From positions 1 through 24,393 of the IMG/VR virus record IMGVR_UViG_3300040810_000056: a stretch of 24,393 bases of DNA; one strand, given 5' to 3'. The notes below the pieces were generated by a model. The model worked only from the letters and a program-made list of their open reading frames with translations. It did not search any database and was not told the origin of the DNA. This stretch comes from a virus. Both the position numbers and the translations under genes were made by a program. Positions 1-13,120 of the stretch are shown one piece after another; within the stretch, counting starts at the first letter, position 1; every line of letters begins with the position of its first letter.

Positions 1-475
1 GAACTGCATAGACAATGGTGTTAGGATGAAACGTGATGTATGATTTGCCTTGAACCTTCTGCTTCTTCAAGTCTCTCTTAGCAAACAAAAAGTCACCTTG
101 AATCACACCTTTGATATTCAAGTCTGGTAGATACTTCAGTGCAAGTTTGAGTTTGGTGTTCAAATCACCAGAAGTATCAGCATCAATGTCTGCATCTGTT
201 TTGTAGACTTTAGGATTCTTATTGAATACACCCTTCTTTGCTACAAAGAACTGTCCATCAGAAGGATCGGTTCCAGCAAAGATTGCAGGCGCACCATCCC
301 ACTTGACACTAGCACTGACTGATGCATCGCTACTACCAGCAAGCATATCTCTGATGCCTCTAAGAAAGTTGATGCTTTCTCTAGCACCTTGCACACCACC
401 ATTTAGCACATTGTCTTCAATATGCTCCATGTGTGTGTTTTTTTCTTCGATTAGATAGGACGAAAACTTTTTCAT
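1..475 (-). CDS. Ligase/nucleotidyltransferase-like phage protein, partial (3' end outside window)
   Basis: The first 158 residues are visible and the C-terminus runs off the left edge. The start ATG overlaps the TGA of the upstream nuclease-like gene (ATGA), so the two are probably translationally coupled. Residues 58-61 read K-W-D-G in the context SVKWDGAPAIF, matching motif I (KxDG) of covalent nucleotidyltransferases such as DNA and RNA ligases, where the Lys takes the AMP. Later come a basic FVAKKG stretch (about 77-82) and QGDFLF (126-131), which could correspond to the GE-type motif III with Asp replacing Glu. From memory this resembles a conserved marine T4-like phage family usually left as a DUF or called structural. 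A strand-joining or nucleotide-transfer role is inference, and the later ligase motifs lie outside the window. Expression is probably late, from the promoter at 1298-1305. Confidence 0.6.
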   Translation of the reverse strand, partial: MKKFSSYLIEEKNTHMEHIEDNVLNGGVQGARESINFLRGIRDMLAGSSDASVSASVKWDGAPAIFAGTDPSDGQFFVAKKGVFNKNPKVYKTDADIDADTSGDLNTKLKLALKYLPDLNIKGVIQGDFLFAKRDLKKQKVQGKSYITFHPNTIVYAV

Positions 476-1269
476 TTCACACCAAACAGTTTCTTAATAT
501 CTTCTACATTGTCTAGACTATACGGAGATTTACCTCTTGTCAAGAGTCTTCCTTGAAGTCTTAGTCCAGCAGAACGAGCGGATGTAGGCTCTGGTTGTGT
601 AGGGAATGATAGTTTACCACCACCAAAACCAAGTCTCATTTCAATCTGAATCTCACCTTTTAGTTCTGGCACATCAAGTTTCAATGGATTTTTACCCATA
701 TAGAACAGTCCAGCACCACCCACATTGATGTAATACACACCCTTTTTGTTGTAGTGTTTAATGATAAATGCGGTTGATGATTTGATGTTCTTGTTGATTT
801 TGGCAAGCAGTCCTCTTTTCTTTAGTTCTGCACGACCATCAACAGATATTTTTAGAGGGATACCAGAAATGTTTTTGTGAAACTGAACTGGTTCAATCTT
901 TCTAGCGGCCTTGATGTAGTTGTTAATATCGTCAGTCTTTTCTTTAGCCGCCGCTAACAACAAGTCCAAGTCTTCTGGGTCCATCTCTTTTGCTGGTGTA
1001 AATGTTCCAGTAGCCATGTCATAACGAAAAGAACCACCACCCATTTGATCCTTGGCGCCTGCTTTGATTTCGATGTTGAAAGGTTTACCATTATAGGATG
1101 CTTCAATATCTCCAGCACCAACATTAGAAAACCCAGCGCCTGGCTTGTCACCAGCATTTAGACCTGCAATGTTCGCCGCTTTCATAGCAGAGTGAACCTT
1201 TATTTCATAGTCAAGTCCAGCCTGCCCGATTGTCTCTTGTAGATTTTGATGCTCAGTAAATGTAAGCAT
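472..1269 (-). CDS. PD-(D/E)XK nuclease-like protein
   Basis: This encodes 265 aa. The N-terminal third has the signature order of a PD-(D/E)XK nuclease: Glu22 in a predicted helix (YEIKVHSAMKAANI), then G-D54-I-E in a strand, then the hairpin ending I-E67-I-K69-A. Asp54, Glu67 and Lys69 would be the metal-binding and catalytic residues. The rest (about 100-265) is less distinctive, with an AELKKRG stretch and a Gly-rich region near 220. The gene starts with ATG behind a GAGGG Shine-Dalgarno and is the first gene after a perfect T4-type late promoter. It overlaps the ligase-like gene by 4 nt. I infer a DNA-cutting partner to that protein; a resolvase or packaging-associated nuclease is equally possible. 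No name is assigned. Confidence 0.65.
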   Translation of the reverse strand: MLTFTEHQNLQETIGQAGLDYEIKVHSAMKAANIAGLNAGDKPGAGFSNVGAGDIEASYNGKPFNIEIKAGAKDQMGGGSFRYDMATGTFTPAKEMDPEDLDLLLAAAKEKTDDINNYIKAARKIEPVQFHKNISGIPLKISVDGRAELKKRGLLAKINKNIKSSTAFIIKHYNKKGVYYINVGGAGLFYMGKNPLKLDVPELKGEIQIEMRLGFGGGKLSFPTQPEPTSARSAGLRLQGRLLTRGKSPYSLDNVEDIKKLFGVK

Positions 1270-1297
1270 GATACCCTCGTATGTTTTATTTACTCAC

Positions 1298-1305
1298 TAT
1301 TTATA
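1298..1305 (-). promoter_or_regulatory. T4-type late promoter
   Basis: The minus strand reads TATAAATA, identical to the T4 late promoter consensus recognised by gp55-type sigma factors. It lies about 29 nt upstream of the nuclease-like gene's ATG and just downstream of the tRNA-cluster terminator, so it opens a new late transcription unit. Confidence 0.8.
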
Positions 1306-1391: not shown

Positions 1392-1465
1392 TGGAGCGGT
1401 TAGAGAGAATCGAACTCTCACATTCTCGTTGGCAACGAGATAGGCTACCCTTACATCATAACCGC
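1392..1465 (-). tRNA. tRNA-Gly (anticodon GCC)
   Basis: The acceptor pair is GCGGTTA/TAACCGC. The anticodon stem TCTCG/CGAGA encloses the loop TTGCCAA, giving anticodon GCC. The T arm is GAGAG-TTCGATT-CTCTC. The 3' end is encoded as TCCA, so CCA is in the DNA. It is the last of four tandem tRNAs on the transcript. Confidence 0.93.
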
Positions 1466-1466
1466 A

Positions 1467-1542
1467 TGGTGCTGAAGGAGAGGCTCGAACTCCCGACCTG
1501 ATGATTACAAATCAACTGCACTACCAACTGTGCTACTTCAGC
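1467..1542 (-). tRNA. tRNA-Thr (anticodon TGT)
   Basis: The acceptor is GCTGAAG/CTTCAGC, the D arm GCAC...GTGC, and the anticodon loop TTTGTAA gives TGT. The anticodon stem GTTGA/TCATC has one T-T mismatch. The T loop is TTCGAGC. ACCA is encoded at the 3' end and the length is 76 nt. One nucleotide separates it from tRNA-Gly. Confidence 0.92.
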
Positions 1543-1545
1543 AAA

Positions 1546-1621
1546 TGGCTCCCTGTGCTGGACTCGAACCAACGACATATGGATTAACAGTCCACCGTTC
1601 TACCAACTGAACTAACAGGGA
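1546..1621 (-). tRNA. tRNA-Asn (anticodon GTT)
   Basis: The acceptor is TCCCTGT/ACAGGGA. The anticodon stem GTGGA/TCCAT encloses CTGTTAA, giving anticodon GTT. The T arm is GTTGG-TTCGAGT-CCAGC. The 3' GCCA is encoded and the length is 76 nt. Confidence 0.94.
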
Positions 1622-1627
1622 ATAATT

Positions 1628-1710
1628 TGGTGCGCCTAGAGAGACTCGAACTCCCACGCTTTCGCACTAGAACCTAAATCTAGCGTGTCTACCAATTTCA
1701 CCATAGGCGC
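1628..1710 (-). tRNA. tRNA-Leu (anticodon TAG)
   Basis: This is a class II tRNA of 83 nt. The acceptor is GCGCCTA/TAGGCGC. The anticodon stem CTAGA/TCTAG encloses TTTAGGT, giving TAG, and there is a long variable arm (TGCGAAAGCGT). The T loop is TTCGAGT and ACCA is encoded. It is the first tRNA on the transcript, 6 nt after the stop of the upstream small gene. Confidence 0.94.
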
Positions 1711-12091: not shown

Positions 12092-13120
12092 TTATTTCAA
12101 GTCTTCAACAGTTAGTTTTGGTAGCGATGAGATACGAGACTTCATCTCAGACATCTCTTCTTCTGGCAAAGGAATCATACCAGCATCAGCAAGAACACCA
12201 TCATCTGTCCAATGCTTCGTCCACTCTTTCATGTATTCTTCAATGCCTGGCACTACACCAATATGATTGTGCTTGACATAGAAGTAAAGCGCACGACTTG
12301 CTTTGTATTGTCCGTCAGCAATAGAGTCGAAAGAAGGCTCAACACCATCTAGCACAGCACCTTGTATTGTGTCAGAGTTTTGATCCAGATATGAGAAGCC
12401 GAAAATACCAAACGCTTCTGGATCGTCTTGTAGTTTCTGAACAATCAGATTGTCTTGCTCACCAGCCTCGATGTATGCACCATCTGTTCTCATAGCACGA
12501 CAAACTTTTGCTTTCTCGCCAGCAATCTTCAATGCTTTCTTAGCAAGTTCATCTTTTCCGCAGTAAGCCTTCTCATTAATCATCTCTACAAAAGATGCTC
12601 TTGTTCCAGAGGTCGTTGGCGGACCCATGACTTTGATTGGAATATTTGGCAAGTCTGGATTGACTTGATTCCAATGTGTGTATGGATTATCGATCCAAGT
12701 GCCGTCTTCTTGTGGAATCTTAGCAGTTAGTGCTTTACCCAAGTCTGCACGACTGATTACAAGTTGTGGTGCTTTTCTTGAGTTAGCAACAACGATACCA
12801 TCGTAACCAACTTTGATTTCTGTCAAATCAACGCCTTGTGCGTTGCAGTATTCTAGTTCTTTTACCTTCATACGAGATGAAGCATTTCCAATGTCGATGT
12901 ATTGAGTGCCAACACCTTGACATACATTCTTCTTACCTACAGATGATCCACCAGATTCTACTACTGGTGTTTTGATTGCAGGGTTGTTACCTAGTTTTTC
13001 AGCAATGATTGTTGCAAATGGAAGGACTGTTGATGAGCCAGCAATGCTGATATAATCTCTAGCATGAGCGGCAGTTGAAAGCATCATCATACTAAATAAT
13101 ACTACGAGCGATTTACGCAT
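12092..13120 (-). CDS. pstS: Phosphate-binding protein PstS (periplasmic)
   Basis: This encodes 342 aa. Residues 1-20 are a Sec signal peptide ending AHA before Arg21. The mature protein opens YISIAGSSTVLPFATIIAEK (typical PstS), with VESGGSSVG and PPTTSGTRASFVEM as the phosphate-binding loops. It captures phosphate in the periplasm and feeds the host PstCAB transporter. Phage-borne pstS is a known auxiliary metabolic gene in marine T4-like phages and supports phosphate supply for DNA synthesis. AGGAG precedes the ATG. Upstream are the endolysin terminator and a TCTAAATA box that may be a late promoter. No convincing Pho box is seen. Confidence 0.93.
   Translation of the reverse strand: MRKSLVVLFSMMMLSTAAHARDYISIAGSSTVLPFATIIAEKLGNNPAIKTPVVESGGSSVGKKNVCQGVGTQYIDIGNASSRMKVKELEYCNAQGVDLTEIKVGYDGIVVANSRKAPQLVISRADLGKALTAKIPQEDGTWIDNPYTHWNQVNPDLPNIPIKVMGPPTTSGTRASFVEMINEKAYCGKDELAKKALKIAGEKAKVCRAMRTDGAYIEAGEQDNLIVQKLQDDPEAFGIFGFSYLDQNSDTIQGAVLDGVEPSFDSIADGQYKASRALYFYVKHNHIGVVPGIEEYMKEWTKHWTDDGVLADAGMIPLPEEEMSEMKSRISSLPKLTVEDLK

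What the first reader, a model, noticed from the sequence alone, without database searches (positions are those of the whole stretch)
1..1269. Nuclease-like and ligase-like genes fused into one late unit
A PD-(D/E)XK-type protein (E22, D54, E67, K69) is ATGA-coupled to a protein with a KxDG motif (K58-W-D-G61), behind a perfect TATAAATA late promoter. A cut-and-join pair expressed late would fit packaging, end repair or virion-associated DNA processing. These families are usually annotated as DUF or structural, so the possible enzymatic pair may be overlooked.
Basis: partly seen in the sequence, partly recalled or inferred. Interest (0 to 1): 0.68.

Follow-up and report, generated by a model that had tools for sequence, protein, structure and literature searches.

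The report
Capsid-tagged nuclease and ligase-like phage genes
A marine relative of phage T4 makes, late in infection, a probable DNA- or RNA-cutting enzyme and a probable joining-type enzyme that carry short front-end tags like those T4 uses to load proteins into its head, so they are probably delivered into the next cell together with the viral DNA.

Summary
Window 472-1269(-) encodes a 265-aa protein whose E22, D54, E67 and K69 are invariant in 24 relatives (down to 23% identity). It overlaps by ATGA the start of a DUF6267 gene (2-475, truncated by the contig end), whose K58-W-D-G61 is near-invariant. A perfect TATAAATA lies 28 bp upstream of the first gene and recurs at that place in divergent relatives. 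The pair is adjacent, not fused.

Full-length DUF6267 (L002) adds invariant QxD, EGxV and KxV motifs in the order expected of a covalent nucleotidyltransferase (RNA/DNA ligase superfamily). AlphaFold gives a confident model (pLDDT 91), but Foldseek and profile comparison give no significant ligase match, so the fold stays inferred.

New finding: both proteins begin with a T4-type capsid-targeting sequence (MxxFxx[FY][IL]xE, cut after E by the prohead protease). It occurs in 102 of 103 distinct DUF6267 N-termini of this clade and in about ten further families flanking DUF6267. Classical cyanophage versions lack it. The gene before DUF6267 is usually a PD-(D/E)XK-like nuclease of varying family; a cytidylyltransferase often follows. 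Best reading: a late, head-packaged, injected nucleic-acid cut/heal/seal cassette. Packaging and enzyme activity are untested.

The parts
1298..1305 (-). T4-type late promoter box TATAAATA
   Evidence: only copy in window; 0.98 expected by chance; conserved at -25 to -38 in divergent relatives; same box upstream of gp23 in relatives' contigs
1274..1278 (-). Shine-Dalgarno GAGGG, 4 nt before the start codon
   Evidence: sequence
472..1269 (-). 265-aa PD-(D/E)XK-like protein (no Pfam; weak phrog_26930)
   Evidence: invariant E22, D54, E67, K69 in 24 sequences; AlphaFold pLDDT 85.6, helix 16-31 (E22), strands 55-59 and 62-69 (E67-x-K69)
1234..1269 (-). N-terminal capsid-targeting-like tag MLTFTEHQNLQE (predicted cut after E12)
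   Evidence: relatives: MKSFKQYLNE, MIRFKNYLNE, MHSFKEYLEE and others; same insertion variant in HTVC008M gp126 MLSFTGYSNLSE; disordered in model
1063..1110 (-). codons D54 to K69 (D...ExK signature)
2..475 (-). DUF6267 (PF19782, phrog_455), N-terminal 158 aa, truncated by contig end; full length 409 aa in L002:5795-7024
446..475 (-). N-terminal capsid-targeting-like tag MKKFSSYLIE (predicted cut after E10)
   Evidence: 102 of 103 distinct N-termini of this clade carry it, positions 4/7/8/10 conserved; T4 ipII/ipIII MKTYQEFIAE
293..304 (-). KWDG (K58-G61), motif-I-like
   Evidence: invariant K58, D60, G61 in 118 of 118
92..100 (-). Q126-G-D128, motif-III-like
   Evidence: Q126 117/118, D128 118/118

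Best explanation
The two genes are the first part of a late 'injected enzyme' cassette of T4-like marine phages. From a gp55-type late promoter the phage makes a PD-(D/E)XK-like nuclease and, translationally coupled to it, DUF6267, a putative covalent nucleotidyltransferase of the RNA/DNA-ligase superfamily; a cytidylyltransferase-like gene follows. Ten to twelve N-terminal residues act as a capsid-targeting sequence: they dock the proteins into the prohead core, the gp21 protease removes them after (L/I)xE, and the mature enzymes stay in the head and enter the next host with the DNA, as T4 IPI-III and Alt do. There the nuclease cuts and the NTase (with phosphatase or kinase partners in some phages) heals or seals nucleic-acid ends, most likely as an immediate-early attack on host nucleic acid or a counter to host nucleases. 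Shown here: gene anatomy, late-promoter conservation, invariant active-site residues, tag conservation and specificity, conserved gene order. Inferred: cleavage, packaging, injection, catalysis, target.
For: (1) Active sites: E22/D54/E67/K69 invariant at 23% identity; K58xDG, QxD, EGxV, K387 invariant or nearly so in 118 sequences; predicted strands place the motifs as in nucleotidyltransferases. (2) Tag: 88 strict plus 14 relaxed of 103 distinct DUF6267 N-termini; in the 77 tags of the exact 10-residue register, position 4 is F/L/Y in 76, 7 is F/Y/H in 68, 8 is I/L/V in 76, while positions 2, 3, 5, 6, 9 show 0.12-0.32 pairwise identity. These are the T4 IPIII determinants: residues 4 and 7 for targeting, 8 and 10 for processing (PMC9026906). 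(3) Specificity: tag in 12 of 18 protein clusters of the cassette against 3 of 40 others (Fisher P 6e-6). (4) gp21 and gp23 are present in relatives' contigs, and gp23 keeps the same type of cleavage site (FLSE|A, LLGE|A). (5) A nuclease-like gene precedes DUF6267 in C48C1, Melnitz, HTVC008M, DLP_6, Vibrio EniLVp02 and cyanophages. (6) A polynucleotide-kinase-like HAD phosphatase (phrog_415, E 1.7e-11), also tagged, replaces it in some loci. (7) The cassette's cytidylyltransferase is a virion protein in S-SM1 and S-CREM2 (PMC3037559, PMC10665884).
Against: No proteomic evidence for either protein in a virion. No significant structural or profile match to known nucleases or ligases. Classical cyanophage DUF6267 proteins lack the tag and S-CREM2's untagged copy is absent from its virion list, so the function cannot always need packaging. 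In HTVC008M the strict tag pattern finds nothing; its leaders are variants. A nuclease packaged with DNA must be held inactive.
Confidence: 0.55

Rival explanations
1. The proteins are head-assembly or packaging factors: the tag directs them to the prohead core, where nuclease and ligase activities trim or repair concatemeric DNA during packaging, and they are not meant to act in the next cell.
Against: The nuclease partner is replaced by about ten families not linked by BLAST, more like an arms race with hosts than a conserved packaging step; T4 CTS proteins are ejection proteins; terminase is encoded separately (Melnitz, HTVC008M).
Confidence: 0.15
2. DUF6267 is the regulator or immunity partner of the nuclease: a toxin-antitoxin-like pair in which the NTase modifies (for example AMPylates) the nuclease and keeps it silent in the head.
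For: ATGA coupling; conserved partner of rapidly changing nuclease-like proteins.
Against: The partner is a HAD phosphatase in some loci; DUF6267 is fused to a cytidylyltransferase in S-PM2 and L042; in P-SSM2 DUF6267 lies far from the window-type nuclease homologue.
Confidence: 0.12
3. Structural proteins that have kept enzyme-like motifs by descent, with no present catalysis (for example DNA-binding internal head proteins).
For: T4 IPs act by binding, not catalysis; no significant fold match.
Against: Exact invariance of all catalytic-type residues while the rest falls to 23-28% identity.
Confidence: 0.1
4. The N-terminal pattern is not a capsid tag but a short conserved segment used for pairing of the cassette proteins; the enzymes act in the producing cell.
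For: Cyanophage versions do without it.
Against: The pattern matches T4 CTS determinants position by position and the cleavage-type site of gp23 in the same phage group; residues 1-13 are disordered in both models; it is shared by otherwise unrelated proteins.
Confidence: 0.08

Closest known systems
T4 internal head proteins IPI, IPII, IPIII and Alt (CTS-carrying, gp21-processed, injected)
   Same: 10-12 residue N-terminal MxxFxx[FY][IL]xE, (L/I)xE cleavage-type site, late genes, variable proteins sharing only the leader
   Different: here the tag sits on predicted enzymes (nuclease, NTase, HAD phosphatase, ATP-grasp), in operon with a conserved partner; no sequence homology beyond the tag; packaging not tested
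DUF6267 (PF19782) / phrog_455 / T4-GC 71
   Same: the second gene is a clear member (E 8e-56 for the fragment, 6e-108 full length)
   Different: the family has no assigned function; the tagged N-terminus is a feature of this non-cyanophage-like clade
T4 RNA ligase 1 (Rnl1) and the RNA/DNA ligase-capping enzyme superfamily
   Same: KxDG, then a D/E motif, EGxV, and a lysine 14 residues later (13 in Rnl1)
   Different: about 130-residue helical region between motifs III and IV; no significant profile or fold match
PD-(D/E)XK nucleases, including NgoMIV/Cfr10I-type SxK variants (recalled, not tested)
   Same: E on first helix, D before a strand, ExK (or SxK in neighbouring families)
   Different: no significant Foldseek or HMM match to a solved member
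Phage T4 Pnkp/Rnl1 RNA repair (recalled)
   Same: kinase/phosphatase and ligase working together
   Different: in T4 these are not packaged; here there is a nuclease partner and capsid-type leaders

Membership tests
DUF6267 (PF19782) | Pfam profile above curated cut-off (27 bits) | tested here: met
   190 bits fragment, 362 bits full length
PD-(D/E)XK superfamily | conserved E...D...(E/D)xK | tested here: met
   E22, D54, E67, K69 invariant in 24 sequences
PD-(D/E)XK superfamily | core alpha-beta-beta-beta-alpha-beta fold similar to solved members | tested here: inconclusive
   model has the helix and strands in order, but best Foldseek E is 0.23 (not a nuclease); a PrfA/RecU-type Holliday junction resolvase at E 0.97
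PD-(D/E)XK superfamily | metal-dependent nuclease activity | not testable with these tools
   needs assay
Covalent nucleotidyltransferase (ligase/capping) superfamily | motif I KxDG with invariant Lys | tested here: met
   118/118
Covalent nucleotidyltransferase (ligase/capping) superfamily | motifs III, IV, V in order | tested here: met
   QxD128, E373-G374-x-V376, K387 invariant or nearly so; motif meaning is by analogy
Covalent nucleotidyltransferase (ligase/capping) superfamily | significant fold or profile similarity to a known member | tested here: inconclusive
   Foldseek PDB: no hit at E<=0.001, LigA adenylation domains at E 1.6-8; viral RNA ligase E 1.0; hhalign to Rnl1 aligns only EGFVAI...KL, P 0.04-0.11. 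Positive control Rnl1 v Rnl2 reaches only probability 11% (P 0.003), so power is low
T4-type capsid-targeting sequence | residues 4 and 7 (targeting), 8 and 10 (processing) as in IPIII, at the N-terminus | tested here: met
   determinants from PMC9026906
T4-type capsid-targeting sequence | prohead protease of gp21 type present with (L/I)xE-type sites | tested here: met
   gp21 in 8 of 9 relatives' records; gp23 sites FLSE|A, LLGE|A by alignment with T4 FLTE|A
T4-type capsid-targeting sequence | protein found in virion, N-terminus clipped, delivered to host | not testable with these tools
   no proteome of a tagged phage found

The most novel reading that the evidence does not exclude
T4-like phages of marine heterotrophs carry a modular injected 'cut and seal' system: a constant ligase-like DUF6267, a nuclease slot filled by many unrelated PD-(D/E)XK-type enzymes (or a nucleic-acid phosphatase), and a cytidylyltransferase, addressed to the capsid by T4-type leaders and acting in the new host from time zero.
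Probability: 0.45. Interest if true: 0.78.

Novelty: new variant of a known kind. Interest (0 to 1): 0.6.

Why it matters
DUF6267 is present in 467 phage genome records held here and has no assigned function. Recognising a capsid-targeting leader on it, and on the changing proteins beside it, turns a set of 'hypothetical proteins' into testable injected enzymes, extends the T4 internal-protein idea from small inhibitors to nucleic-acid enzymes, and gives a simple sequence rule for finding more injected proteins in marine T4-like phages.

Tried and rejected
Foldseek against PDB for both models and against viral models for DUF6267: no significant hit outside DUF6267 relatives. Profile search of PDB sequences: chance hits only. 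Pfam scan of all family members: nothing consistent with a nuclease or ligase. hhalign with the helical insert removed and remote members added: no gain. PF01653 and PF09414 in the window: none. The promoter box by itself was not accepted as evidence (expected 0.98 per window); conservation of place was used. An attractive but weak idea, that DUF6267 is NAD-dependent and the cytidylyltransferase (called an NMNAT homologue in PMC10665884) recycles NMN, rests only on insignificant LigA hits and is not claimed. No paper in the library names DUF6267, and none of the papers listed describes such leaders in marine phages.

Full report
What is there. The window is a 24.4-kb fragment of a T4-like marine myovirus (uvsX, gp41, gp43, gp44, gp45 homologues on the minus strand) and is the whole record held. 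At its left end two minus-strand genes overlap by ATGA: 472-1269, 265 aa, and 2-475, cut by the contig end. The first has no Pfam match and a weak match to phrog_26930; the second is DUF6267 / phrog_455. A contig carrying the identical first gene (L002) supplies the full 409-aa DUF6267 and the next gene, an 824-aa cytidylyltransferase-like protein.

Active sites. In 24 relatives of the 265-aa protein, E22, D54, E67 and K69 are among only 16 invariant residues. In 118 DUF6267 proteins, including ones from Vibrio, Xanthomonas, Stenotrophomonas, Pseudoalteromonas and cyanobacterial phages, K58, D60, G61, D128, E373, G374 and K387 are invariant. The sequence EGFVAIDxxGxxAVKLVDR resembles motifs IV and V of T4 RNA ligase 1, with 14 residues between E and K (13 in Rnl1; alignment A5). 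AlphaFold2 models are confident (PD protein pLDDT 85.6; DUF6267 91.1). In the latter each motif lies on or next to a strand: K58 at the end of 54-58, QGD in 124-132, EG just before 374-379, K387 in 384-388; a helical block, 225-354, separates the last two motifs from the rest. Neither model gives a significant match to solved structures. LigA adenylation domains recur among the insignificant hits (E 1.6-8). The fold claims therefore remain inference from motifs and topology.

The leader. Nearly all relatives in the window's clade start with M, two or so residues, F, two residues, F/Y/H, I/L, any residue, E. Of 103 distinct DUF6267 N-termini 88 match a strict and 14 a relaxed pattern. In the 77 tags of the exact 10-residue register, positions 4, 7 and 8 are held while 2, 3, 5, 6 and 9 drift (M1 and E10 are fixed by the pattern used to select these 77). 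The T4 record reads MKTYQEFIAE for ipII and ipIII. In T4 IPIII residues 4 and 7 decide targeting and 8 and 10 processing (PMC9026906), and prohead proteases cut after Glu in short motifs (PMC5694885). The PD protein carries the same leader (MKSFKQYLNE, MIRFKNYLNE, MHSFKEYLEE; window form MLTFTEHQNLQE with a two-residue insertion also seen in HTVC008M gp126, MLSFTGYSNLSE). Classical cyanophage DUF6267 and the P-SSM2 nuclease homologue lack the leader and begin near the conserved core. In both models residues 1-13 are disordered. The relatives encode gp21 and gp23, and gp23 shows FLSE|A or LLGE|A where T4 has FLTE|A (the T4 site is established knowledge, the relatives' sites are by alignment). 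In the Melnitz proteome the strict pattern occurs in 3 of 221 proteins against 0.14 expected, one being the gene directly before DUF6267. In HTVC008M the strict pattern finds none of 198; the cassette leaders there are variants. Over 58 protein clusters from the loci, leaders occur in 12 of 18 cassette clusters and 3 of 40 others (P 6e-6); clusters may not all be independent.

The cassette. An ORF ends within 60 nt of the DUF6267 ORF start in 243 of 278 loci, with 1- or 4-nt overlap in 123. These upstream proteins fall into many families not linked by BLAST. Ten of 18 cassette clusters conserve D-x(5-18)-[E/S]-x-K, against 3 of 40 other clusters (P 1.5e-4). Some upstream clusters are plainly unrelated neighbours (for example tail-type proteins), so the slot is not always a nuclease. 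One group is instead a HAD phosphatase related to polynucleotide kinase (phrog_415) with leader MLSFRSFITE. HTVC008M adds a zeta-toxin/AAA_33 kinase starting MIPFILKEG. A gene with an NPPTxGH motif follows within 1.8 kb in 92 of 129 loci of the window-like group; in S-PM2 and L042 it is fused to DUF6267. Its family, T4-GC190, was found in S-SM1 virions (PMC3037559), and a cytidylyltransferase is in S-CREM2 virions, whereas S-CREM2's untagged DUF6267 (gp87) is not in the listed proteome (PMC10665884).

Late expression. TATAAATA at 1298-1305(-) is the only copy in the window. One copy is expected by chance, but the box sits at about the same distance before the gene in divergent relatives, and lies close upstream of gp23 in relatives' contigs.

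Verdict. Mechanism judged most likely: capsid-packaged, protease-trimmed, injected nucleic-acid enzymes that cut and heal or seal in the new host. T4 heads tolerate packaged nucleases such as EcoRI and staphylococcal nuclease (PMC9026906), so a nuclease in the head is feasible.

Noticed in passing
L336:82-1131 (Melnitz MZ577097): A RimK-like ATP-grasp enzyme (PF08443) starts MTQKFSQFITE|E, a perfect capsid-targeting-like leader; likely another injected enzyme.
   Followed up: partly
L037:2420-3025, and upstream of DUF6267 in L057: HAD phosphatase related to polynucleotide kinase with leader MLSFRSFITE / MQSFKQFITE occupies the nuclease slot.
   Followed up: partly
L429:6562-7224 (HTVC008M gp129): Zeta-toxin/AAA_33 P-loop kinase inside the cassette, start MIPFILKEG.
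   Followed up: partly
L014:4057-5004: Second tagged nuclease-like protein (phrog_12709, MAITFAQFINE) before the window-type nuclease and DUF6267; its homologue pairs with DUF6267 in Vibrio phage EniLVp02.
   Followed up: partly
window 1392-1710 (-): Four tRNA genes (Gly, Thr, Asn, Leu) directly upstream of the late unit.
   Followed up: no
window 12092-13120 (-): Phosphate-binding PstS-like gene beside the DNA polymerase gene.
   Followed up: no
L119:9301-9858: DUF6321 protein with a leader (MLTFKKYLEE).
   Followed up: no
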